A stretch of 64,000 bases of DNA from Curtobacterium flaccumfaciens (GTDB lineage: Bacteria; Actinomycetota; Actinomycetes; Actinomycetales; Microbacteriaceae): positions 3,224,001-3,288,000 of the forward strand of contig CP121450.1 in assembly GCA_029689965.1 (NCBI GenBank). The letters run 5' to 3'. This document shows, piece after piece, positions 4,434 to 54,079 of the stretch. The position numbers and the translations under genes were made by a program. Below the pieces are notes generated by a model. The model saw only the letters and a program-made list of their open reading frames with translations, was not told the DNA's origin and did no database searches. Each line of letters begins with the position of its first letter. Position 1 is the first letter of the stretch.

Positions 4434-7238
4434 TTCTTCTTGGCCGCGGTCTTCCGCGCCGGTGCCTTCCTCTTCACCGGACCCTTGGCACGCTTGTCCG
4501 CGATGAGCTGGACGGCACGGGCGTGGTCGACCGCTTCGACGTCCTCGCCACGCGGGATGGTCGCGTTGGTCTCGCCGTCCGTGACGTACGGACCGAACCT
4601 TCCGTCCTTCATCTTGATCGGCTTGCCGGACACCGGGTCGGCGTCGAACTCCTTGAGCGCGGCGCTCGCGGCACGGCGTCCGCCGTACTTCGGCTGGGCG
4701 AAGAGTTCGAGGGCTCCGGGCAGGTCGATGTCGAAGATCGCGTCCTCGCTCGGCAGGGTCCGGGTGTCGGTCCCCTTCTTGAGGTACGGGCCGTAGCGGC
4801 CGTTCTGCGCCGTGATGTCGTCGCCGGACTCGGGGTCCTTGCCGACCGTGCGGGGCAGGTCGAGCAGCTTGAGGGCGGTCTCGAGGTCGACCGTCTGCGG
4901 GTCCATCGACTTGAAGAGCGACGCGGTGCGTTCCTTCGGCGCCGCCGCCTTCTTGGTCGTCTTCTTGGCCGGCTCCTTCTTGGTGGCAGTCACCTTGCCG
5001 GCCGCCTGTGCGGCCGGCGTTGCGGCCCTCGCGGCGGCGGAGTCGGCGTCGGCGGCCGCAGCGGTGTCGAGCACCTCGCCGGTGGCGGGGTCGACGGCCG
5101 GTTCCGGCTCCGGAGTGCGCTCGGTCACGTACGGACCGAACCGGCCGTCCTTGGCGAGGACCTCTTTCCCGGACTCGGGGTTGATGCCGACGACCCGGTC
5201 GCCGAGCACCGGCGCGTCCACGAGCTCGCGTGCCTTCTCGGCGGTGAGCTCGTCGGGCGCGAGGTCCTCGGGGACGTTCACCCGCCGGGGCTTCTCGGGG
5301 TCGTCGCCGGGACCTCGATGTAGGGGCCGTACCGGCCGATGCGCAGCGTCAGACCGGGGCGAGCTCGACGGAGTTGATCTCACGTGCATCGATCTCGCCG
5401 AGGTTGTCGATGACCGTGCGGAGACCGCGCTGGTCGCCACCGCCGAAGTAGAACTCCTTGAGCCAGTCGACCCGGTCCGCGTCACCGTTGGCGATGCGGT
5501 CGAGATCGGCCTCCATGTCGGCGGTGAACTGGTACTGCACGAGGTCGCCGAAGTAGTCCTCCAGCAGACGCACCACGCTGAACGCGATCCAGTTCGGCAC
5601 GAGCTGCGTTCCCCGCAGCGAGACGTAGCCGCGGTCGATGATCGTCGGGCTGATCGTCGGGAACGTCGACGGACGCCCGATGTCGAGGTCCTCGAGCGTC
5701 TTGATCAGGCTCGCCTCGGTGTAGCGCGGCGGCGGGGTCGTGTCGTGCCCCTTCGCGACCACGTCGTCGACACCGAGGTGTTCCCCTTGCTTGACGTCGG
5801 GCAGGGCGACGTCGGTGCCGGGGCGGTCCGAGGGCTCGTGACGGTCCTCGTCGCGGCCCTCTTCGTAGGCGTTGAGGAAGCCGCGGAACGTGATGACGGT
5901 GCCGGAGGCGGTGAACTCCGCGTCGGTACCGTTCGCCGTGGCGGCGATGCCCTCGACGGACTCGCCGGAGCTGATGCCGAGCACGATCGACGCGGTGGAC
6001 CCCTTCGCGTCTGCCATCTGGGACGCGATCGTGCGCTTCCAGATGAGGTCGTAGAGCCGCCATTCGACACCGGTCAGGGTGCCCTCGAGCTGCGCCGGGG
6101 TGCGGAAGGTGTCACCGGCCGGGCGGATCGCCTCGTGCGCCTCCTGCGCGTTCTTGCTCTTGCTCGCGTAGACCCGCGGCTTGTCCGGGACGGTCGCAGC
6201 GCCGTACAGGTCGGCCGCCTGCTTCCGGGCGGCGTCGGTCGCCTGCTTGGAGAGGTTGACCGAGTCGGTACGGATGTAGGTGATGTACCCGTTCTCGTAC
6301 AGGGTCTGTGCGGCGCGGGCGGTCTGACGCGGCGAGAGACGGAGCTTGCGCGCGGCCTCCTGCTGCATCGTCGACGTCGTGAAGGGCGCGGCCGGACGAC
6401 GCGTGTACGGCTTCGACTCGACGCTGCGGACGGTGGCGTCGCCGGCGCGCTCGAGCACCGTGGTCAGCGCGGCGGCGGCGGCCTCGTCGAGGCGGACGGC
6501 GTCGCCCTTCAGCGCGCCGCGGTCGTCGAAGTCGCGGCCGGAGGCGACGCGGGTGCCCTGGACGCGTGCGAGCCGAGCGGTGAAGGCGGTGTCGCCCGGC
6601 TTCTCGAAGCGGGCGCTGAGGTCCCAGTAGTTCGCGGACACGAACGCGAGACGCTCGCGCTCACGGTCGACGACGAGTCGGGTGGCGGCGGACTGCACGC
6701 GGCCGGCGGACAGCCCGGGGCCGACCTTGCGCCAGAGCACGGGCGAGACCTCGTACCCGTAGAGACGATCGAGGATGCGACGGGTCTCCTGCGCGTCGAC
6801 GAGGGCGGTGTCGAGCTCGCGGGTGGCCTCCTGCGCGCGCTGGATCGCCTCCTTCGTGATCTCGTGGAACACCATGCGCTTGACGGGCACCTTCGGCTTC
6901 AGGACCTGGAGCAGGTGCCACGCGATGGCCTCGCCTTCGCGGTCCTCATCAGTCGCGAGGTAGAGCTCGTCGGCGTCCTTGAGCGCTCGCTTAAGCTCGG
7001 AGACCGTCTTCTTCTTCGCGTCGGACACGACGTAGTAGGGCTCGAAGCCGTTGTCGACGTCCACCGAGAACTTGCCGAGGGAGCCCTTCTTGAGCTCCGC
7101 GGGCAGGTTCTTGGGCTCGACGAGGTCGCGGATGTGTCCGACGGACGCCTGGACCTCGTATCCGTCACCGAGGTATTGCGCGATCGTCTTGGCCTTCGCG
7201 GGGCTCTCGACGATGACGAGCTTCTTCGTGCCTGGCAC
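4430..7238 (-). CDS. topA: DNA topoisomerase I (frameshifted near the C-terminus)
   Basis: Type IA topoisomerase that relaxes negative supercoils; about 936 aa, normal for actinobacteria. The N-terminal Toprim domain starts KKLVIVESPAKAKTI, and the metal-binding DREGE lies in ATDEDREGEAIAW. The catalytic tyrosine is in GYITYIRTDSVNLS. The C-terminus has repeated GRFGPYVT/GRYGPYLK modules instead of zinc ribbons, then a basic Lys/Ala tail ending in KKK. Two breaks, near 5352 and 5308, interrupt the first module. The GTG at 7236-7238 follows AAGGAGA. The upstream TadE-like frame runs into this gene without a stop. Confidence 0.95.
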
Positions 7239-7682
7239 GTGTCTCCTTGATCGATGGTGCGCGTCGGCCCTGGACGACGAGCGCGTCCGGGTCGACCGGG
7301 GCACCGGTGACCGGGGGCCGACAGGCACACCATACACATAGTGTTCGGGCTGGTCGTCCGCCGGACCGGCGACCGCGACTGCGCCGACGGCGAACGGTCC
7401 GCCGTGGACGACGACCCGGACCCGGGCGGCGGCAGCGGCGGTCCCGCAGGCACCGACCACTGCACGGTTCGCCTCGGCCACCCGCGCCGCGACCGAGCAC
7501 GGGTCGCCGGGCAGGAGCCCCACGACGGCCGCCGCTGCCGCGAGGGCGGAGGCGTCCGCAGCGGTCTGGGCACGGACCGTCGCCACCCGGAGTACGGCAG
7601 CGGCGAGCGCCGAGGCGACCACGAGGAGAGCGACGCCGACCACCGCCGTCACGAGCACCGTGGCGGATCCGCGCTCGCTCAC
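7239..7682 (-). CDS. TadE-like pilus assembly protein of the Rv3654c type; 3' end undefined
   Basis: The GTG start at 7680-7682 overlaps the preceding TadE stop (GTGA). The N-terminus reads SERGSATVLVTAVVGVALLVV, a basic stretch then one membrane segment, followed by TVRAQTAADASALAAAAAVVG, typical of the small TadE/TadG-like proteins encoded beside Tad genes in actinobacteria. The frame has no stop and continues in phase into topA. Between 7573 and the topA start no frame contains a stop, so a single indel cannot end it before topA unless the protein is only about 36 aa. The end at 7239 is placed arbitrarily at the topA start. Confidence 0.6.
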
Positions 7683-7984
7683 CGGCCGTCCTCCGCCGCG
7701 CACCCGGTGGCCCTGAGCGGCACCGCGGAGAACGGGCCGACGCCGCCGCGCTCCGCTTCGACGCAGACGACGCCACCACCGCGGTGGATCGTCACGCCGG
7801 CCCCGGGAGCGAGCCGCTCGACCGCAGTCCGGCCGGCGTCGTCGTCGCCCCGTCCGAAGGCACGCGCCCCGGTCGCCGCCGCCAGCTGGAGTCGGCCGAG
7901 ACCGTCGACGACGAGCACCGCGGCGACGAGGGAGGTGAGCACGAGGGCCACGACGGGGAGCGCGACCGCGAACTCGACGCTCAC
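7679..7984 (-). CDS. TadE-family minor pilin-like protein
   Basis: Small protein of about 101 aa with an N-terminal membrane helix, SVEFAVALPVVALVLTSLVAAVLVV in essence, preceded in frame by RERGTV. That gives the E-F/Y motif that marks TadE/TadF pseudopilins cleaved by prepilin peptidase. A periplasmic-side domain with a Cys pair follows. The GTG at 7982-7984 is the conventional start, but homology (RERGTV) extends upstream, where only a CTG is available; the true start is uncertain. It lies between the DUF4244 gene and a second TadE-like gene. Confidence 0.7.
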   Translation of the reverse strand: MSVEFAVALPVVALVLTSLVAAVLVVDGLGRLQLAAATGARAFGRGDDDAGRTAVERLAPGAGVTIHRGGGVVCVEAERGGVGPFSAVPLRATGCAAEDGR

Positions 7985-8016
7985 GGTGCCACGCTCCCGT
8001 CCGGTCCCTCCCCGCT

Positions 8017-8223
8017 TCAGAGGGAGAGGGCGCCACGGACGAGCTCAGTGAGGATGCTCTGGACCTCGCCGGAACGCATCACCGCGACGAGTACACCTGC
8101 GAAGGCCACGGCGGCGAGGATGACGACCGCGTACTCCGCCGTGGCGGAGCCCCGGTCGTCGCGGAGCCGTCGCCGGAGCCGGGCGCCGGCGCTCGGGTGG
8201 GACGTGGTGGGTGTGTCGGTCAT
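8017..8223 (-). CDS. DUF4244 protein, probable Flp-type major pilin
   Basis: 68 aa and intact. A basic leader (LRRRLRDDRGSATAEYAVV) precedes one hydrophobic helix and a short tail ending in GALSL. The G-S-A-T-A-E-Y motif resembles the Flp/TadE processing site, with the conserved Glu at about position +5. The ATG at 8221-8223 has a good AGGAAGG site. In actinobacterial Tad loci a DUF4244 gene occupies exactly this place between the membrane F protein and TadE, so it is the likeliest fibre subunit. No other pilin gene is visible nearby. Confidence 0.8.
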   Translation of the reverse strand: MTDTPTTSHPSAGARLRRRLRDDRGSATAEYAVVILAAVAFAGVLVAVMRSGEVQSILTELVRGALSL

Positions 8224-8306
8224 GGGTCGTCCTTCCTGGTGTGGTCGTTCCAGCCTCGTGTCCCGTCGGGTTCCGCCGCGCCCCGCGGTACGGATCTGTG
8301 GAGCGA

Positions 8307-9210
8307 TCACCGGATGTCGACGACGGTGGAGGAGAGGACTCCGACCACGACCGGCACGACCCCGACGAGGACGAACGCCGGCAGGACGCACACGCCGAGC
8401 GGCAGGACGAGCCGGACGGCCAGACGTTCCGCTGCGGCCAGCCCGGCGGCCGCGGCGTCGTCGCGGACGTCCTCGGCCGCCGCACGCAGGAGCGCTGCGG
8501 CGGGCACACCGGCCCGACGGGAGAGCGCGAGGACCTCCCGCAAGCGCGCGGCCTCCGTGGCGGAACGAGCGGTCACATCGGATGATCCGTGTCGTTCGTC
8601 GAACGCCTCGCGGACCGCCGCGCCACCCGACGCCCACGCCCCGCCACCGGACACCGCGACCGCCCACGCGTCGAGCAGCACGCCCGGCACGTGACCGTCC
8701 GGGTCGCCGCGCGCACGAGGCGAGCGGTCCACGCGCGCGCGGCCGCGACGAGCAGGGCCGCCACGGCGCAGCACACCCATCCGATGGGCGACGCCACGAG
8801 CACCTGCACGGCGCCGGCACCCATGCCGTTCCGAGGGCGAGGCCGAGCGCGGGGAGCGCGAGCACGATCCGAGCGCTCGCACGCGGCCCGGCGAGCGCCA
8901 CCCGGACGGCACGGTCCGACGCCGCGGACCGCCGCAGCGCGCCCGCGAGAGAGCGGAGCGCGTCGGCCGACGGCGCTCCGGTGCGCTCCGCGACCCGGAG
9001 GACGGCGGCGACGTCCTGCCAGGCGGGATCACCGCCCGCTGGGAACCCGCCCACCAGCTCCCAGGCCCGGGGCGGCGGGACACCGGCCGCGACGAGGGTC
9101 GCGACCCGGTCCAAGGCCCGTGCCGCCGACGAGCCGTCATTCGACGCCCGCACGGGCCGAGCCGACGCCCGCCGGGACCTGGCCGCGCCCTGGAGAGCGA
9201 CACGGCGCAT
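8307..9210 (-). CDS. Type II secretion F-domain protein, TadB/TadC-like (frameshifted)
   Basis: Inner-membrane platform protein of the Tad pilus, about 301 aa. The first helical F domain is ALDRVATLVAAGVPPPRAWELVGG...VLRVAERTGAPS. Two membrane helices follow (VLALPALGLALG; SPIGWVCCAVAALLVAA), then a second helical block (LREVLALSRRAGVPAAALLRAAAEDV) and a C-terminal membrane helix. Frame breaks lie near 8828 and 8690. Its ATG (9208-9210) overlaps the tadA stop as ATGA. Many loci carry separate TadB and TadC genes; only this one F-domain gene is present here. Confidence 0.75.
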
Positions 9211-10206
9211 CACCGCGGCCGTTCCAGCGGACGCACCACGAGCCTCCCGTCCGTCCCCACCCGGAGGGTGCCGACGGCGGCGAGCCGACGTCGACCGCCG
9301 CTCCGCTCGACGTGCAGCACCAGTTCGAACGCGCTGACGGCCTGCCGGGCGAGCGCCTCGGCCCCGAACCCGGCGAGGGCACCGAGCGCTTCGAGCCGCG
9401 CGGCCACGTCCGGGAGGCCGTTCGCGTGCACCGTCCCGGCGCCACCGTCGTGCCCGGTGTTGAGCGCGGAGAGGAGCTCGCGGATCTCGGCACCGCGGCA
9501 CTCCCCACGACGATGCGGTCCGGACGCATGCGAAGGGCCTCCCGCACGAGCCGGTCGAGTCCGAGCGCACCGGCGCCCTCGGCGTTCGCCTGCCGCGCCT
9601 CGAGCGCCACGACGTGCGGGTGGTCGATCCGGAGCTCGGCGACGTCCTCCACGGTCACGATGCGCTCGTCCCGCGGCACGGCGGCGAGCAGGGCGGCGAG
9701 CATGGTCGTCTTGCCGCTCCCCGTCGCTCCGGTGACGAGCACGTTGCGCCGTTCGTCGACGGCACGTTCGACGACCGAGCGTGGGACCCGGCCGAACGCA
9801 CCGAGGGCGTCGAGCGACGCGAGCGTCGGACGTTCCGCGGCCGGCAGCCGGATCGAGACCGCGGTTCCGCCCACGGAGACGGGCGCGAGCACGACGTGCA
9901 CCCGGATGCCGTCGCCGTGCCGGACATCGGCGCGGGGGTGGTCTCGTCGACATGCCGGCCGCCGCGGGCGACGAGCTCGGTCGCGAGTTCGCGCACCCGC
10001 CGCTCGGGCAGCTCGGGCGCGACACGTTCGAGGCCGCGGCCGCGGTCGATCCACGTCCCGCGTCCGCCCACCACGAGGACGTCGGTGACGGCGGCGTCGC
10101 CGATCAGCGCGGCGAGTTCCTCGTAGTCGGCGGCAGCGACGTGCCGGGAACGGGAGGGGCGCGACGTGCCCGGCAGGAAGGGCGCGTCGGCACGGTGTCG
10201 GTGCAT
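9210..10206 (-). CDS. CpaF/TadA-type pilus assembly ATPase (frameshifted)
   Basis: Secretion ATPase that powers Tad pilus assembly, about 332 aa. Visible features: N-terminal domain (AALIGDAAVTDVLVVGGRGTWIDRG), Walker A GATGSGKTTMLAALL, the Asp box ERIVTVEDVAELRI, a Walker-B-like LRMRPDRIVVGECRGAE and the His box ALNTGHDGGAGTVHAN. Frame breaks lie near 9940 in a G5 run and near 9508. The ATG at 10204-10206 is the first candidate and gives a basic N-terminus; a start slightly downstream is possible. No Ssd/TadZ-like gene precedes it, unlike the M. tuberculosis Rv3660c-Rv3654c order. Confidence 0.85.
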
Positions 10207-45540: not shown

Positions 45541-45658
45541 CGGGTCGCGCCAGCGGGCGAGCGTCTGCTGCACCGCGGTGCGGTCGCGTCCAGCCGGCGA
45601 GCGCCTGCCGCACCGCCGTCCGGTCGCGTCAGCGAGCGAGCGCCTGCTGCAGGTCCGC
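45541..45658. repeat. Triplicated 3' end of metB
   Basis: Three related segments: about 45542-45575, 45583-45613 and 45622-45652, each of the form GGTCGCGTCAGCGAGCGAGC followed by GyCTGCyGCA. The third is the genuine metB C-terminus and stop (ends ...LQQALAR); the other two are downstream copies that have lost coding context. Confidence 0.75.
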
Positions 45659-46773
45659 GACGAGGTCGCCGGCGTCCTCGATGCCCACCGAGAGCCGGAC
45701 GACGTTCTCGGGCACCGCGAGCTCGGTGCCCTTCACCGACGCGTGGGTCATCTCGGACGGGTACCCGATGAGCGACTCCACCCCGCCAAGCGACTCGGCG
45801 AGCGCGAACAGCTCGGTCGACTCCGCGAAACGCCGCGCTGCCTCGGGCCCCCGGACAGCGCCACCGAGAGCATGCCGCCGAAGCCCCGCATCTGCCGCTC
45901 CGCGACGTCGTGCCCGGGATGGTCGGCGAGCCCCGGGTAGTAGACGCGCTCGACACCGTCCGCTGCGACGAGGGCCTCGGCCACGGCCTGGGCGTTCTGC
46001 GAGTGCCGTTCCATCCGGACGGCGAGGGTCTTGATGCCGCGGGTGGTCAGGAACGCGTCGAACGGCGAGGAGATCGCCCCGGCGCCGAACTGCAGGAACT
46101 GCACCCGCTCGGCGAGCTCGTCGTCCGCGAGCACCACGGCGCCGCCGACGACGTCCGAGTGGCCGCCGAGGTACTTCGTGGTGGAGTACACGACGACGTC
46201 GGCACCGAGCGACAACGGCTGCTGCAGGTACGGCGACGCGAAGGTGTTGTCCACGACGACCACCGCGCCGGCCGCGTGGCCGATCTCGGCGAGCGCCGCG
46301 ATGTCGGCGATCTTCATGAGCGGGTTCGTCGGGGTCTCCACCCACAGCACGGTCTGCGCTGGAGCTCCGTCGAGCGCGCCACGCACCTGGTCGAGGTCGC
46401 TCATGTCGACGACCACGAGCTCGACGCCCCACGGCACGTGCAGCCGGCTGACCAGGCGGTGGGTGCCGCCGTAGACGTCGTTGCCCATCACGACGCGGGA
46501 GCCCGGGGCGAGCGTGGCGCGCAGGAGGGCGTCCTCGGCGGCCAGGCCCGAGGCGAACGAGTACGCCGCCGCGCCGCCGTCGAGGTCCGCGAGGAGCGTC
46601 TGGAGCGAGTCGCGCGTCGGGTTGCCCGCACGCGAGTACTCGTAGCCGTTCCGCATGCCGCCGATGCCGTCCTGCACGTAGGTGGAGGTCAGGTGGATCG
46701 GCGGGATGACGGCGCCGGTCGGGCCATCGGGCTCCTGTCCGGCGTGGACGGCTCGGGTGCTGAACTCGGTCAT
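45629..46773 (-). CDS. metB: Cystathionine gamma-synthase/lyase family enzyme (frameshifted)
   Basis: PLP enzyme of trans-sulfuration, about 381 aa. Marks: FSTRAVHAGQEPDGPTGAVIPPIHLTSTY, YEYSRAGNPTRDSLQTLLADLDGG, VVVVDNTFASPYLQQPLSLGAD and the PLP lysine in VVYSTTKYLGGHSDV. The C-terminal LIGYPSEMTHASV and ENVVRLSVGIEDAGDLVADL follow a break near 45848. Gamma-synthase versus gamma-lyase cannot be settled from sequence alone; the neighbouring beta-synthase favours the trans-sulfuration route from homocysteine to cysteine or the reverse. ATG at 46771-46773 overlaps the cbs stop (ATGA). Confidence 0.9.
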
Positions 46774-48170
46774 GCTGCGGGGTTCCCTTTGCTCGGAGAT
46801 GACGGGGTCGCTCGGACAGGTAGGTCAGGAGGTCGTGTCGGGTCAGGACGGTGACCGGCTTGCCGTCCTCGACCACGAGGAGCGCGTCGGCGGTCTCGAG
46901 CGCGCGGCGGGCGGCGGAGACCGACTCGCCGATGCCGATCAGGGGCAGCGGCTCCCCCACGAACCCGGACAGGGCGTCCGCCATCTTCGCCGAGCCGGTG
47001 AAGACCTGCTCGAGCAGCGCCTTCTCCTCCACGGCGCCGACGACCTCGCCGATCACGACGGGCGGCTCGGCGCTCAGCACGGGCATCTGCGAGACGCCGT
47101 ACTTCGTCATGATGTCCACCACCTCGCGCACGGTGTCCGCCGGGTGGGCGTGCACGAGGTCCGGCAGGCGCCCGTCCTTGCCGGCGATGAGCGAACCGAC
47201 CGTGCGCTCGTCGTCGGTCTCGGCGAAGCCGTAGGAGCGCATCCACCGGTCGTTGAAGATCTTGCCGAGGTACCCGCGGCCGCCGTCCGGCAGCAGCACG
47301 ACCACCACGTCGTCCTCGGTGAGTTCGCGGGCGGCGCGCAGCGCGGCGACGACCGCCATGCCGCTCGACCCGCCGACGAGGAGGCCTTCCTCACGCGCGA
47401 GACGGCGGGTCATCGCGAAGGAGTCGGCGTCCGACACGGCGATGATCTCGTCCGGGACCCGGCGTCGTACGCGCCCGGCCAGAAGTCCTCGCCGACGCCC
47501 TCGACCAGGTACGGACGACCGGTGCCGCCCGAGTAGACGGAGCCCTCCGGGTCGGCGCCGACGATGCGGACGCGCCCCTCCGACGCTTCCTTCAGGAACC
47601 GGCCGGTGCCGGAGATGGTGCCACCGGTACCGACGCCCGCCACGAAGTGCGTGACGCGCTGCTCGGTGTCGCGCCAGATCTCCGGACCGGTCGTCTCGTA
47701 GTGGCTGCGGGGACCGTTCGGGTTCGCGTACTGGTTCGGCTTGTAGGCGCCGGGGATCTCGCGGACGAGCCGGTCGGACACCGAGTAGTACGACTCGGGG
47801 TGCTCCGGCGGCACGGCGGTCGGCGTGACGACGATCTCCGCGCCGTAGGCGGTCAGGACGTTGCGCTTGTCCTCGCCGACCTTGTCGGGCAGCACGAAGA
47901 CGCACCGGTACCCACGCTGCTGGGCGACGAGCGCGAGGCCGACGCCGGTGTTGCCGGAGGTCGGCTCGACGATCGTGCCGCCAGGCCGCAGGTCGCCCGA
48001 GGCCTCGGCGGCGTCGATGATCCTGGTGGCGATCCGGTCCTTCGACGAGCCCCCGGGGTTGAGGTACTCGACCTTCACGAGGACGGTCGCCCGCACCCCT
48101 CGGTCACCCGGTTAAGCTTGACGAGCGGTGTGTCGCCGACGAGGTCGACCACGGAGTTCGCGTAACGCAC
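46770..48170 (-). CDS. cbs: Cystathionine beta-synthase (frameshifted)
   Basis: Condenses serine and homocysteine to cystathionine; about 467 aa. N-terminus VRYANSVVDLVGDTPLVKLNRV, the PLP lysine in GGSSKDRIA, TSGNTGVGLALVA, and the phosphate loop VGTGGTISGTGRFLKE. A C-terminal CBS-domain (Bateman) pair follows (VHAHPADTVREVVDIMTKYGVSQMPVL; ALLVVEDGKPVTVLTRHDLLTYLS). Breaks lie near 48100, 47460 and 46815, the last restoring the end SPSKGNPAA. GTG at 48168-48170 lies ten bases after the MscS-type gene; its stop overlaps metB. Confidence 0.93.
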
Positions 48171-48180
48171 GCGGTCGAGT

Positions 48181-49612
48181 CTAGGCGGCGGACACCGTCT
48201 TCGGCTGGGACTCGACGTGCGCGGACACCGCCGCCGAGACCTCCTGCCGGCGCCGGTCGATGACCTCGCCCATGTCCCGCGCGAGGGCCGGGGTCCGACG
48301 CACGATCTGGTCGAGCGCGGTGGCGGGCACGACGAGCACCGCGACCTCGGTCAGGGCCACGGCGGTGGTGAGCAGCGCCTCCCGGGTCAGCGCCGTCTGC
48401 CCGAGGTAGTCGCCGGCCTCGACCCGGGTGACGGGCAGGTCGGCGTCCTCGAACGGGACCCGCAGGTCGACCGTGCCGGACAGGACGAACCGGACCGCGT
48501 CCGGCACCGTCCCCGCCGTCGTCATCGTCTCACCGGCCGCGTAGCGCTCGAGCCGTACGAGCGGTGCCAGCGCGGTGGCGTCGTCGCCCGTCAGGTACAG
48601 CGTCGGCGCGATCGAGGCGAGGGCTGCGTCGCGCCGGTCCTCGGTGACGAAGTCGTCGGTGTCGTCTCCGTCGAGCCCGAGGCCGGCACGGCGTGCGGCG
48701 TACCAGAGCCACATCCGGAGCTGGGCGACGGCGGCCCCCTCCTGCGACGGCCCGCGCACCTCGAAGGACACCCTGTACCCGGCGCCACCCGTCGGGACCG
48801 CGGACGGCTGTGTGCCGGGGTACCGCTGCGGCAGGCCGGACGCGACCTGCTGCAGCAACGCGACCACGGCCGCCGGCGGGTCGTCCGTCGTGAACGTGAC
48901 GTCCGTCGAGACCGGGAACGTGCCTCCCGTCCGGCTGAGGTTCGTGAACGACGCTCCCGCCAGCGAGGAGTTCGGCATGATGAGGATCCCGGCGCCCGTG
49001 TCGATGTGCACCGACCGCCAGTTCGCCTCGACGACGCGGCCACGCACTCCGCCGGCGTCGAGCCAGTCCCCGAGTCGGAACGGCTGCTCGAAGAGCAGGA
49101 AGAGTCCCGCGATCACGGGCCCGACGGCGGACTGCAGCGCGAGGCCGATGACGAGCGAGCCGACTCCCAGGGCCGTGAAGATCCGCCGACGTCGGCTCCC
49201 CACACGATCTTGCAGACCAGCGCGAGCCCGAGGGCGATGAGCACGATGCGGGCGATGTCCACGAAGATCGACGGATCTTCTCGCGCCAGCTGCCCTTCCG
49301 TGCGTTCGCGAACAGCACGATGTTCAGACCGTTCAGCACGAACACGATGACGAGGAACCCGAGCACCGTGCCGATGACCTGGTTCACCACGGGCTTGCCC
49401 GGGTCCACCGCGTCCGTGACCTGCACGGACAGGACGAGGATCGCGATGATCGGCACGACGGCGTTCCGGAGCAGCCCGATCACCTTGTGCAGCGGGTTGC
49501 CCCGGCGCTCGAGGTTCGACTGCAGCTCGGTGAGGACGAGCAGCACGAGTGGCAGACCGACGATCACGCCGATCGCCGGCCAGAACCACGGCTGCTGCCA
49601 GAACGCGGTCAC
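48181..49612 (-). CDS. MscS-type channel with C-terminal cyclic-nucleotide-binding-like domain (frameshifted)
   Basis: About 477 aa. Four or so membrane helices lead to the MscS pore helix (LGVGSLVIGLALQSAVGPVIAG) and beta domain (VEANWRSVHIDTGAGILIMPNSSLAGASF). A CNBD-like domain follows (LVRLERYAAGETMTTAGTVPDAVRFVLSGTVDLRV...VEAGDYLGQTAL...). The usual phosphate-binding cassette Glu and Arg (GExAL...RxAT) are replaced: LGQTALTREALLTTAVAL has Gln and Thr. Breaks lie near 49270 and 49190. GTG at 49610-49612 overlaps the cyclase stop. Size and order match Rv2434c beside Rv2435c in M. tuberculosis. The ligand is uncertain. Confidence 0.87.
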
Positions 49613-51835
49613 GACGCCGCTCCCGCGGCCCGCTCGAGCCGCCAGATCCGCTGCGGACCGGCCTGCGTCCGCACCTCGCCGGCGTCCTGCACACCGCCGC
49701 GGTCGCCGAGCTTGTCGACCACCCGCTGCGTCGCGTACACGCCCGGCGACGGTGCGATGCCCTGGACCCGGTAGGCCAGGCTCACCGCGTCGCCCCACAT
49801 GTCGTAGACGATGCTCGACCGGCCGACGAGTCCGCTCGTGACCTGTCCGGTGTCGATGCCGGCGCGCAGCCCGATCTTCGACCCGTGTTGCGCGTTGAAG
49901 CGCTCGAGCGCGTCCTGCGCCTCTTCCGCCCACTCGACGACCCTCCGGACGTTGTCCACGCGGGGACGCTCAGGCCGCAGCTCGCCAGGTAACCGCTGCG
50001 GGTCGTCCGGACGCGCTCGATGCCGTACCGGCCGGCCGCCTCGTCGAGCGACCGCCAGATGTCGTTGACGAGGGAGAGCGACTGTTCCGCGGTGAGCCCC
50101 GCTGCGAACTCGTCGAAGCCGACGATGTCCGCGTACACGACCGCGACGTCCTGGTGATCGGCTGCGATCGTCTCGTCGCCCTGCTTGTACCGCCGGGCGA
50201 CCTCCTCCGGCATCAGGGTCAGCAGCAGGGTGTCGTTCTGCCGTCGCTGCTCGTCGAGCAGGTCCTGCTTCACCTGCAGACTGCGGCTCATGTCGTTGAA
50301 CGCGAGCCCGAGGTCCCCGATCTCGTCGCCGGCCTTCGTCCGCACCTCGGCGCCGAGGTCGCCGGAGCTCACCCGGTTCACCGCCGTCTGCAGGCGTCGG
50401 ATCGGCCGGACGAACACCTGCGCGAGCAGCAGGGACAGCAGGCTCACGAGGACGATGATGCCGACGAGCGCGAGCCCGATGTTGCGAGCGAAGTCGTTCA
50501 CCGGCGCGAACGCCTCGGACGTGTCCATCTGGGCGACCACGACCCAGCGGAGTCCGTCCACCTCGAGCGGGGCGTACGCGGACAAGACCTCTTTCCCCGG
50601 TAGTCCCTGGAGATCGTCGTCCCAGAACGGCCCTGCAGCGCCCGAGTGACCGGTGTGGTGTTCACTTCCTGCAGCAGGACCGAACCCTTGACCTGGACCT
50701 GCCGCGCGGCCGTCGACGGCGACGTCCCCGCGGCGATGACGTCGCGCCGGTACTGCGCCGGGTGCTCGATCAGCTGGCGCGGGTAGGAGCGCATCAGGTG
50801 GTCCGCGCCGACCAGGTAGGACTCGCCCGTGTCGCCGAGACCGGCTGCCTTCCAGTGCTCGTTGCCGGTCATCACCCTGGTGATGAGGTCCACGGGCACC
50901 TGGACGGCCATCACGCCGATGATCTTGCCGTCCTCGGCGACCGGGGACATCACCCACAGGGTCGGCACGTTGAGGCTCGGCACGTAGCGGCCGAAGTCCG
51001 TCACGACGAAGCCGTCCGAGGTCGTCAGGCGGAGCGTGTCCCGGTACCCGGTCGCCAGGTTGGAGTCCCGGTACGGTCCGTCGTCGAGGTTCGTGCCGAG
51101 GTCGGCGCCGGAGTACGCCGAGTAGACGACGTCGCCGTCGGTGTCCATGAGGAGCAGGTCCTCGTACCCGGTGGACTCGACCGCCTGCTGGAAGTACGGC
51201 TGGTACTCGGCGTGCGCCGTCGACCAGCTGCTGCCGTCCCCGGCGTCGTCCTGCTCGATCGCCTTGTCGTAGTCGGTGAACGGCGCCGTGTACCGCGCCT
51301 GCAGGTACACCTGCGGGTCCTCGGTCGGTGCGAATTGCTCGGGGTCCGCCGTCCCGCCGCTGCGCTCGTCGAGCTGCGGCACGAAGCTGTCCCGGTACCA
51401 CGCCTCGACCCGGGTGTGGTCGTCGTCGGACACGGGACGCGACCGCAGCTCGTCCCACCCGGACTCGAACGCCTTCGTCGCCCCGATGACGCTCGCGTTG
51501 CGGGTCTGGGCGACGACGGTCTGCGTGAACTGCCCGAACGAGCGCTGCAGCTCGGTGATGCGGGACTCGCGCAGGGACGTCACCTGGTTGAACGCGGCGT
51601 GTTCCAGCGAGTCCCGCCCGTTCAGGTAGCCGACGACACCGACCACGAGCGCGGCCACGATGCTCACGGCCAGCAGCATCACCAGGAGCTTCGACTGGAT
51701 GTCCAGGTTGCCGCTCGCGAGGAACGCCCGGAGCTTCCCGCTCCGCCGCGGAACGTCCTCGACGACGCGCGGCGCATCGGGACCGACGGGTGCGGTCGGC
51801 GGGATGGGGTCGGACGTCGGAGGGACTGCGGTCAC
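49609..51835 (-). CDS. Membrane sensor class III nucleotide cyclase: Cache-HAMP-cyclase (frameshifted)
   Basis: About 742 aa. One membrane helix (LLVMLLAVSIVAALVVGVVGY), a large extracytoplasmic double-Cache-like domain (about residues 70-440, with WVMSPVAEDGKIIGVMAVQV), a second helix (NIGLALVGIIVLVSLLSLLLAQ), HAMP, then the cyclase domain. The first metal Asp is present (VVYADIVGFDEF), but the second position reads RTTRSGYLASCGLS where active enzymes have a GD pair, and the transition-state Asn is Ser (WGDAVSLAYR; Arg kept). The substrate-type Asp in YDMWG is kept. Breaks lie near 50610 and 49965. GTG at 51833-51835 follows GGAG. Resembles Rv2435c in layout and length. Confidence 0.88.
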
Positions 51836-51956
51836 TTGGAACTCCGCTCAGGAGACACGGCGCGCAGGTGCGCGTGCACAACTGCTACCACCGGTCCCCG
51901 TCCTGTCCGCCGTCGTCCTTCTTCCTGACGCCACGGAGTCGCGGTGGCGGGTGGCG

Positions 51957-52099
51957 GCCGGGAGGCGCGGGCCGGGCCCGCCACGCGCCTCCCGGCCGAC
52001 GTGCGCCGGGCCGGAGGCACGGGTCGGCGCCGCCACGCGCCTCCCGGCCGACGTGCGCCGGGCCGGAGGCACGGGTCGGCGCCGCCACGCGCCTCCAGT
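51957..52099. repeat. 52-bp tandem array of GGAGGC-family palindromes
   Basis: Two perfect 52-bp units (51979-52030, 52031-52082) and a third partial copy. Each contains CGCGCCTCCCGGCC and GGGCCGGAGGCACGGG, so the array can fold into several alternative hairpins. The first half-unit at 51957 reads GCCGGGAGGCGCGG. The final copy switches to the CCTCCAGTCC version. It lies between the ABC exporter 3' end and the cyclase start, on the upstream side of the cyclase operon. Confidence 0.92.
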
Positions 52100-52132
52100 C
52101 CGTACGGTGGTCGCGGACGCGCGCCGCTCGCG

Positions 52133-54012
52133 TCAGCCGTCCAGCAGGTCCACCGGTGCGTTCTGCTGGTGGTGCAGCATCGCGTAGGTGCCGTCCTGCG
52201 CGAGGAGTTCCTCGTGTGTGCCCTGCTCGACGATCCGGCCGTGCTCGAGCACGAAGATGACGTCGGCGTCCCGGATCGTGGACAGCCGGTGGGCGATCGA
52301 GATCGTCGTCCGGCCGGCGGCCGCGTTGTCGAGCGCCGTCTGCACCACCCGCTCCGAGATGGAGTCGAGCGCGCTCGTCGCCTCGTCGAGGACGAGCACC
52401 GGCGGATCCTTGAGCAGCACGCGCGCGATCGCGATGCGCTGCTTCTCACCGCCGGACAGACGGTACCCGCGCTCCCCCACGACGGTGTCGTAGCCGTCCG
52501 GGAACGACGCGATCGTCTCGTGGATGTTCGCCGCGCGCGCCGCACGCTCCAGTTCTTCGTCGGTGGCGTCGGGCTTGGCGTACCGCAGGTTGTCGCCGAT
52601 CGTCGCGTGGAAGAGGTAGGTCTCCTGGCTGACGATGCCGACGTGGGCCATGAGGTCCTCGTGCACGATGTCGCGGACGTCCTGCCCGGCGAACCGCACC
52701 GAGCCTTCCGTCGCCTCGTAGAGCCGAGGCACGAGGTACGACACCGTCGTCTTGCCGGCGCCGGACGGACCGACGAAGGCGGCGAACTGGCCGGGCTCGA
52801 GCTCGAAGGACACCCCGCGCAGGGTCGGCTTGTCCGGCTCGCCGTCCGGGTAGGCGAAGGTCACGTCCTCGAACGCCACGTGTCCGACGCGCGATTCGTC
52901 GACGGGCTTCGCGGTCGGTGCGTCCGTGATCGCCGGCTTGAGGTCGAGGTACTCGAAGATGCGGGCGAACAGCGCGCCGGACGTCTGCAGGTCGAGCACC
53001 ACCCGCAGCAGGCCCACCGTCGGGAACAGCAGCCGGGACTGCACGGTCGTGAACGCCACGATCGTGCCGGCGGTGATCGGCACGTCGCCGAGGATGAGGT
53101 ACGCGGCGACGACGTAGATGATCGCCGGGATGATCGACAGGAAGATCTGCACGATCGCGAAGAACCACTGCCCGGACATCTGCTGCCGGACCTGCAGACG
53201 GATCTGGTTGCGGTTCTCGGCGCCGTACCGCTGCGTCTCGCTGCGCTGCTGGTTGAAGCCTTCGCGAGCAGGATGCCGGAGACGCTCAGGGCCTCCTGGG
53301 TGATCGCCGTCATGTCCGACAGCGACTCCTGCGTCTGCGCGGCGATCCGGGCGCGGACCTGACCGACCCGGCGCTGCGCGATCACCAGCAGCGGTAGCAG
53401 GATCACCGCGACGAGCGTCATCTGCCAGCTGAGCAGCAGCATCGCGACGACCGCGGCGATGACGGTGACGGTGTTGCCGAGCACCGACGAGATCGTGTTG
53501 TTCAGCACGCTGGCGACGCCGCCCACGTCGTTCTGCAGGCGCGACTGGATGATGCCGGTCTTCGTGCGGGTGAAGAACGCGAGCTCCATGCGCTGCAGGT
53601 GCCCGAACAGGCGCATGCGCATCGAGCCCATGACCTTGTTGCCGACGGTGGCGGTGAGGTACGTCTGCCAGACCCCGACCCCGGCGCTCGCGATCCACAG
53701 TGCGACCATGGCGGCGACGAGGAGGTAGAGCACCGGGAGGTCGGGACCGCCCCCGCCCTTCGGGAAGAGCCCCTCGTCGAAGGCACGCTGGGTGAGCAGC
53801 GGCGGGATGACGGAGATCGCCGCACCGACCAGGACGAGCACGACCGTCAGGATGATCGAGTTCCGGTGCGGGACGAACAGCCCCGAGATGCGCTTGAGCA
53901 GGTGCGGGATCCGCGGCGCCTCGGCGTTGGCGGCCTTCTGCGCCTCGAAGTCGCCGCTCGAGATCCGGCCGCCGCGCATGCCGCCACCGCGCATCCCGCC
54001 GCCCATGCTCAC
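52133..54012 (-). CDS. ABC exporter, fused permease and ATPase (frameshifted)
   Basis: About 626 aa half-transporter of the multidrug/lipid exporter type; it should act as a homodimer or with another half. A Gly/Met/Arg-rich N-terminus (SMGGGMRGGGMRGG) precedes six membrane helices. ATPase: Walker A FVGPSGAGKTTVSYL, Q-loop VSQETYLF, signature YRLSGGEKQRIAIARVLL, Walker B VLVLDEATSALDS, H-loop IAHRLSTI. One break near 53262. GTG at 54010-54012 follows AGGAGTGA. Divergent from the amino acid permease. Substrate not inferable. Confidence 0.92.
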
Positions 54013-54079
54013 GAGGCGTCACTCCTGTCCATGCTGCAAACCTAGCCCCGGGTACGGACATCGGACGGCCGCCGCTCAT

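What the first reader, a model, noticed from the sequence alone, without database searches (positions are those of the whole stretch)
48181..51835. Coupled cyclase and cyclic-nucleotide-domain MscS channel, both with altered active-site residues
A Cache-HAMP class III cyclase overlaps (GTGA) a mechanosensitive channel carrying a cyclic-nucleotide-binding-like domain, suggesting that an extracellular ligand controls a channel through a local nucleotide. Seen directly: the cyclase keeps the first metal Asp but has Ser (TTRSGY) where the second Asp should be, and Ser for the catalytic Asn. The channel domain lacks the Glu and Arg that bind ribose and phosphate. Both changes are in uninterrupted frames. 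From memory, M. tuberculosis Rv2435c-Rv2434c has the same order and lengths. Inference: the pair co-evolved to use a non-canonical nucleotide or protein contact, or is a signalling unit without classical cyclase activity.
Basis: partly seen in the sequence, partly recalled or inferred. Interest (0 to 1): 0.78.

Follow-up and report, generated by a model that had tools for sequence, protein, structure and literature searches.

The report
Inactive-looking cyclase paired with channel
Many actinobacteria carry a membrane sensor that looks like a cyclic-AMP-making enzyme but has lost part of its active site, next to a channel whose cyclic-AMP pocket is also altered, so the sensor may control the channel by touching it instead of by making a messenger.

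Summary
The pair is real: a Cache-HAMP-class III cyclase overlapping (GTGA) an MscS channel with a C-terminal CNB domain, in a Curtobacterium. "Uninterrupted frames" is wrong: each gene lies in three frames of a genome scored 65.5% complete. Same-genus relatives have the cyclase in one frame in 6 of 6 and the channel in 5 of 6, with Ser or Ala at the second metal position, so that change is no error. In 80 related loci (best of 562) the second metal Asp is kept in 0 of 80 and the substrate Lys in 0 of 80; the CNB Glu in 0 of 75 readable channels. Asn->Ser is not defining (22 of 80). The channel is directly downstream in 79 of 80. In a 394-genome class sample both genes occur in the same 30 genomes, adjacent. 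In the 7 Curtobacterium genomes with the pair it holds the only class III cyclase domain and the only CNB domain found. The cyclase domain is under purifying selection. Best reading: a pseudocyclase receptor that gates its channel by contact, without a classical cyclic nucleotide; the contact is not shown. A cyclase-channel-cyclase form exists, also degenerate. The M. tuberculosis pair is in print as part of the cAMP network; I did not examine it.

The parts
50591..51835 (-). Cyclase gene, first frame piece: N-terminus, TM1 (51620-51694), double Cache-like extracellular region
   Evidence: 86% identical to residues 1-415 of intact orthologue L033; dCache_1 E 2.7e-9, below its cut-off
49962..50597 (-). 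Cyclase gene, second frame piece: TM2, HAMP (within 50271-50414), start of the cyclase domain with first metal Asp (50115-50135) and Ser AGC for the second (49995-49997)
   Evidence: 95% identical to L033 residues 414-625; HAMP and Guanylate_cyc; positions
49609..49965 (-). Cyclase gene, third frame piece with stop: PRVDNVRR (49942-49965), YDMWGDAVSLAYR (49768-49806)
   Evidence: 92% identical to L033 residues 625-742; Guanylate_cyc; positions
49609..49612 (-). GTGA stop/start overlap of cyclase and channel
   Evidence: sequence; an ATGA/GTGA/TTGA overlap in 47 of 79 related loci
49274..49612 (-). Channel gene, first frame piece: N-terminal TM helices
   Evidence: 94% identical to L033 channel residues 1-113
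49182..49298 (-). Channel gene, second frame piece (upper limit approximate)
   Evidence: aligned to L033 channel residues 106-144
48181..49182 (-). Channel gene, third frame piece with stop: MscS pore helix and beta domain (from 49179), C-terminal CNB-like domain (about 48274-48600) with GQTALTREALLTTAVA at 48355-48402
   Evidence: 92% identical to L033 channel residues 145-477; MS_channel_2nd and cNMP_binding; positions

Best explanation
A two-gene receptor-channel unit. A double Cache domain senses something outside; a TM helix and HAMP domain pass the signal to a cyclase-fold domain (probably a dimer) that has lost its second metal site and no longer makes a cyclic nucleotide; that pseudocyclase instead contacts the cytoplasmic part of the MscS-type channel, most likely its C-terminal CNB-like domain, and changes its opening. 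Shown: the anatomy; the loss of the second metal Asp, the Lys and the CNB Glu; joint inheritance; purifying selection; no other class III cyclase or CNB domain found in the Curtobacterium genomes with the pair. Inferred from recalled class III chemistry: no or negligible cyclase activity. Inferred only: the physical contact, its site, and the direction of the effect on the channel.
For: Second Asp kept in 0 of 80, Lys in 0 of 80, and in 0 of 12 pair loci found by whole-protein search; control: 23 of 23 readable other class III domains from six pair genomes keep the Asp. CNB Glu in 0 of 75. Channel adjacent in 79 of 80; both genes in the same 30 of 394 genomes. Only PF00211 domain in 7 of 7 pair-bearing Curtobacterium genomes and only PF00027 domain in the same 7. 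dN/dS 0.07-0.24 for HAMP plus cyclase part. Clean presence or absence of both genes at one site. Folds intact in models. Pair-specific PRxDNxRR (R 80, D 80, N 70, R 79, R 80 of 80) where other cyclases mostly differ, a candidate contact face.
Against: No contact was shown; no complex was modelled. The first metal position (D 56, E 24), the specificity Asp (80 of 80) and in many members Asn (48 of 80) and Arg (54 of 80) remain, so nucleotide binding or weak activity cannot be excluded. A channel Arg five residues after the Glu place is kept in 71 of 75, and 12 of 75 have an Arg near the PBC place, so the CNB fold may still bind something. One of 80 cyclases has no channel beside it (L171).
Confidence: 0.5

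Rival explanations
1. The cyclase is active in an unorthodox way and makes a non-standard cyclic nucleotide that the altered CNB domain of its own channel reads.
For: Specificity Asp kept 80 of 80, first metal position D or E in 80 of 80; the CNB part matches Pycsar effectors (PycTIR E 4e-8; PDB 8jsj E 1e-5), whose ligand in entry 8jsk is cUMP (title).
Against: Second metal Asp and Lys in 0 of 80; the replacing letters are of nine kinds, with no sign of one new catalytic residue; in cyclase-channel-cyclase loci the first Asp is gone in 8 of 8 domains. Glu absent in 75 of 75 CNB domains.
Confidence: 0.2
2. The unit senses rather than makes nucleotides: the cyclase fold binds an NTP, or the CNB-like domain binds a nucleoside or other small ligand, and this tunes the channel.
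For: Many binding residues remain; trypanosomatid PKA has CNB domains that bind nucleosides instead of cAMP, with the Arg replaced (PMC10959531, passages); those structures are among the matches of the channel model.
Against: In that precedent glutamates make the ribose contacts, while Glu is absent here. The CNB part is the least conserved part of the pair inside the genus (dN/dS 0.11-0.64). It does not by itself explain the tight link to a Cache receptor.
Confidence: 0.17
3. The odd cyclase is one half of a heterodimer with a normal cyclase made elsewhere in the genome.
For: Mycobacterium-like genomes have 14-19 PF00211 matches each; its best PDB sequence match includes the C2 half of AC9, which lacks a metal Asp.
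Against: No second class III cyclase was found in 7 of 7 Curtobacterium genomes with the pair, nor in G261 and G293. In cyclase-channel-cyclase loci the two cyclases do not complement each other.
Confidence: 0.06
4. Sequencing error or decaying genes.
For: Four frame breaks in the pair here and low genome completeness; one same-genus channel (L035) is also broken.
Against: One open frame for the cyclase in 6 of 6 and the channel in 5 of 6 same-genus relatives, the same kinds of change across the family, low dN/dS. The frame breaks are most likely artefact; the substitutions are not.
Confidence: 0.03

Closest known systems
M. tuberculosis Rv2435c-Rv2434c (an adenylate cyclase and a membrane protein in print)
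   Same: Double Cache domain reported in Rv2435c (PMC4822843, passage); mycobacterial loci have the same gene order and similar lengths.
   Different: Papers seen count Rv2435c as an adenylate cyclase and Rv2434c as part of the cAMP pathway (PMC11205783, passage); the family residues speak against the first.
bCNG channels (MscS family with a CNB domain; Caldwell et al. 2010, seen only as a reference)
   Same: MscS pore domain plus C-terminal CNB fold.
   Different: The CNB Glu is gone in 75 of 75 and the Arg in most, and the gene is tied to a pseudocyclase; that bCNG channels keep these residues is recalled, not tested.
Class III cyclases of Rv1625c type and mammalian AC9
   Same: Fold and sequence.
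   Different: No second metal Asp, no Lys, and Arg/His for the Gly before the Asp in 75 of 80.
Pycsar (cyclase plus CNB-bearing effector)
   Same: Two-gene cyclase-CNB layout; CNB part resembles PycTIR.
   Different: MscS channel instead of TIR, Cache-HAMP receptor, degenerate cyclase.
LapD-type degenerate GGDEF/EAL receptors (recalled, no call)
   Same: A HAMP-linked former signalling-enzyme domain used for protein contact; analogy only.
   Different: Different fold; here the signal would run from outside to a channel.

Membership tests
Active class III nucleotidyl cyclase | Cyclase homology domain fold | tested here: met
   PF00211 E 7e-26 for intact L033; model matches 5o5l, TM 0.83 by target length
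Active class III nucleotidyl cyclase | Two metal-binding Asp | tested here: not met
   Second Asp 0 of 80; first position D 56, E 24
Active class III nucleotidyl cyclase | Substrate-choosing Lys/Asp pair | tested here: not met
   Lys 0 of 80 (R 78, H 1, Q 1); Asp 80 of 80
Active class III nucleotidyl cyclase | Transition-state Asn and Arg | tested here: inconclusive
   Asn 48 of 80, Arg 54 of 80; window: Ser and Arg
Active class III nucleotidyl cyclase | Catalytic activity | not testable with these tools
   needs a bench assay
MscS channel family | Pore helix and beta domain | tested here: met
   PF00924 E 9e-18; Foldseek matches MscK and MscS
bCNG (cyclic-nucleotide-gated MscS) channel | C-terminal CNB fold | tested here: met
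bCNG (cyclic-nucleotide-gated MscS) channel | Phosphate-binding-cassette Glu and Arg | tested here: not met
   Glu 0 of 75; Arg within two residues of the place in 12 of 75; neither in the window
bCNG (cyclic-nucleotide-gated MscS) channel | Gating by cyclic nucleotide | not testable with these tools
   needs electrophysiology
Pycsar | Pyc cyclase plus CNB-bearing effector (PADLOC models) | tested here: inconclusive
   PycC best E 0.0017 only; PycTIR matches the CNB part (E 4e-8) but Pfam finds no TIR domain; phage defence not tested

The most novel reading that the evidence does not exclude
An ancient bacterial relay in which a cyclase and a nucleotide-binding channel were both turned into a purely protein-based ligand-gated channel: Cache receptor, HAMP, pseudocyclase, pseudo-CNB domain, MscS pore. 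It is spread over Microbacteriaceae and mycobacteria, with a cyclase-channel-cyclase version in other classes of the phylum.
Probability: 0.42. Interest if true: 0.8.

Novelty: new variant of a known kind. Interest (0 to 1): 0.6.

Why it matters
If right, proteins that papers list among mycobacterial adenylate cyclases and cAMP-pathway members may not belong to the cAMP network, and bacteria have a receptor-operated channel whose sensor and effector domains are both former cyclic-nucleotide parts. Curtobacterium offers a clean test, because no other class III cyclase or CNB domain was found in the 7 genomes with the pair.

Tried and rejected
Frame breaks as real: rejected, intact relatives. 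Asn->Ser as a shared feature: rejected. Complementary C1/C2-like halves in the cyclase-channel-cyclase loci (L081-L085): rejected, the first Asp is absent in 8 of 8 domains and Asn and Arg in 7 of 7 readable ones, although the first cyclase keeps the Lys (4 of 4) and an Asp stands at the second position in 5 of 8; my notebook entry 4 says wrongly that the second cyclase lacks all. Clean gene fusion in Leifsonia aquatica L112 (one frame of 1234 residues): set aside, the junction reads like a frame slip. PBC Arg 'absent everywhere': corrected, 12 of 75 have an Arg within two residues. In one search the six pair CNB rows were missing, truncated or in a wrong frame, so pair CNB residues rest. Mirror test: distances of cyclase and channel among 75 loci correlate at 0.94, but the nearest neighbour agrees in only 44 of 75; it adds little beyond co-inheritance.

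Residues were read for 12 of the 13 pair copies outside the window in the phylum sample (L087-L098) and not for the further genomes of the class sample. The phylum and class samples share genomes. The control took 24 of 46 other PF00211 matches, one unreadable. Left out of the CNB counts: L171 (no channel) and four truncated channels. G009 and G023 were not in the empty-site test.

Literature: nine searches on the pair or its parts and one on trypanosome PKA listed no paper on the joint loss. The most relevant one (PMC2447327, 2004 survey) is held as abstract and references only, although the index counts Rv2435c 10 times and Rv2434c 3 times in it; it may already describe the linkage or the odd residues.

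Full report
What is there. On the minus strand at 51835-48181 lie a Cache-HAMP-class III cyclase gene and, overlapping it by GTGA at 49609-49612, an MscS-type channel gene with a C-terminal cyclic-nucleotide-binding (CNB) fold.

Frames. Both genes are cut into three frames. The window's genome is one contig of 3.84 Mb scored 65.5% complete, while 22 of the 23 same-genus genomes searched have 93-100% (one has 73%), so small insertion and deletion errors in the assembly are the likely cause. The neighbouring ABC-transporter gene also runs through more than one frame. Six of the 23 same-genus genomes have the pair: the cyclase is in one frame in 6 of 6, the channel in 5 of 6 (L035 has one break).

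Substitutions. In the six, the second metal position is Ser (3) or Ala (3); the Asn position is Ser (4) or Asn (2); the Arg is kept. A scan of genome contigs with a 16-sequence profile confirmed 562 relatives, of which the best 80 were kept. In these the second Asp is kept in 0 of 80 (N 25, G 19, S 12, E 8, Q 7, A 4, T 2, K 2, R 1) and the Lys in 0 of 80 (R 78, H 1, Q 1); the first metal position is D 56 or E 24, the specificity Asp is kept in 80 of 80, Asn in 48 (S 22, D 8, T 2) and Arg in 54 (Q 22, other 4). The Gly before the second Asp is R 60, H 15, Q 2, T 2, K 1. The surroundings are rigid: PRxDNxRR and YDxWG are nearly fixed. The CNB motif could be read in 75 of 79 channels: Glu in 0 of 75 (Q 45, L 20, S 5, H 3, I 2); an Arg within two residues of the PBC place in 12 of 75; another Arg, five residues after the Glu place, in 71 of 75.

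Control. In six pair genomes 52 PF00211 matches were found, six of them the pair cyclases. Of the other 46, 24 were fetched; 23 of 23 readable ones keep the second Asp, the six pair cyclases do not. Of 25 PF00027 matches in those genomes 19 are not the channel; 14 of these 19 show the Glu.

Linkage. The channel lies directly downstream on the same strand in 79 of 80 loci; L171, a second copy in one mycobacterial MAG, has none. In the phylum sample of 396 genomes 16 have the channel (E 1e-30 or better) and all 16 have the cyclase (E 1e-40 or better) beside it. Two genomes have the cyclase alone at those cut-offs: G192 has a channel fragment at a contig end, G201 a stand-alone canonical cyclase. 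In the class sample of 394, both occur in the same 30 genomes, adjacent in all; two further channel hits (G642, G691) cover only part of the MscS region. The three genomes with two full copies have two pairs. In Curtobacterium the pair sits between the same ABC-transporter gene (PF00005) and PLP-enzyme gene (PF00291) in 6 of 6 genomes; these two are direct neighbours in 15 of 15 genomes tested without the pair. Presence is a block trait.

Nothing else found to talk to. Over 23 Curtobacterium genomes PF00211 matches only this gene in the 7 with the pair; of the 16 without it 15 have no match and one (G006) a different, weaker one. PF00027 matches only this channel in the same 7 and nothing in the three pair-less genomes tested. 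The abstract of PMC2447327 says that only class III cyclases occur in the actinobacterial genomes then available. Outside this genus it is different: mycobacterium-like genomes have 14-19 PF00211 matches and 6-8 PF00027 matches each.

Selection. NG86 dN/dS between same-genus orthologues (four comparisons): HAMP plus cyclase part 0.07-0.24, Cache part 0.17-0.30, MscS part 0.035-0.25, CNB part 0.11-0.64. The domain with the broken active site is held about as tightly as the pore; the CNB part is the loosest.

A second architecture. In G068, G122 and G344, of other classes of the phylum, the channel lies between two cyclases, and G192 looks like a copy split over two contig ends. Of the eight cyclase domains none has the first Asp, none of seven readable ones has the Asn or Arg; the first cyclase keeps the Lys in 4 of 4; an Asp stands at the second position in 5 of 8. 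So the loss pattern differs from the pair family, but no dimer of these domains has a full active site. A tree of 63 domains puts the 35 pair cyclases in one clade (100/99) and the eight others in one (97/88); their joining is weakly supported (94/52), next to four canonical domains (L086, L179-L181). In the class of G122 only 2 of 66 genomes carry such a channel at E 1e-30.

How it most likely works. From class III chemistry (recalled: two Asp hold two metals, Lys/Asp choose the base, Asn/Arg hold the transition state) the domain should not cyclise NTPs. With the CNB Glu gone too, and no other class III cyclase or CNB domain found in the Curtobacterium genomes that carry it, the simplest working unit is a receptor whose pseudocyclase touches the channel. 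The contact is inference, and ligand binding by either domain remains open. Trypanosomatid PKA shows that a CNB fold can leave cAMP for nucleosides (PMC10959531, passages).

Known or new. Passages seen treat Rv2435c as an adenylate cyclase (PMC3961136, PMC4822843, PMC3938503) and Rv2434c as a membrane protein possibly of the cAMP pathway (PMC11205783). My searches listed no paper on the joint degeneration, but I could not read the body of the 2004 survey, which names both genes.

Noticed in passing
window 45629-54079: Neighbouring genes run through several frames too (for example the ABC transporter, membrane part 54012 to about 53170 and ATPase part to 52133 in another frame). Any 'broken gene' call in this window should be distrusted.
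   Followed up: partly
window 48274-48600 (CNB domain of the channel): The CNB part also resembles the CNB insert of family 2B encapsulins (NCBIfam NF041163, E 1.8e-8) and of Pycsar TIR effectors.
   Followed up: no
   Followed up: partly
L112 (Leifsonia aquatica) 5815-9519: Cyclase and channel lie in one open frame of 1234 residues; looks like a frame slip at the junction, but could be a fusion.
   Followed up: partly
G006:C2:141849-142265: A Curtobacterium genome without the pair has a different, weak class III cyclase match.
   Followed up: no
L171 (mycobacterial MAG RYN_164): Second copy of the altered cyclase without a channel beside it.
   Followed up: partly
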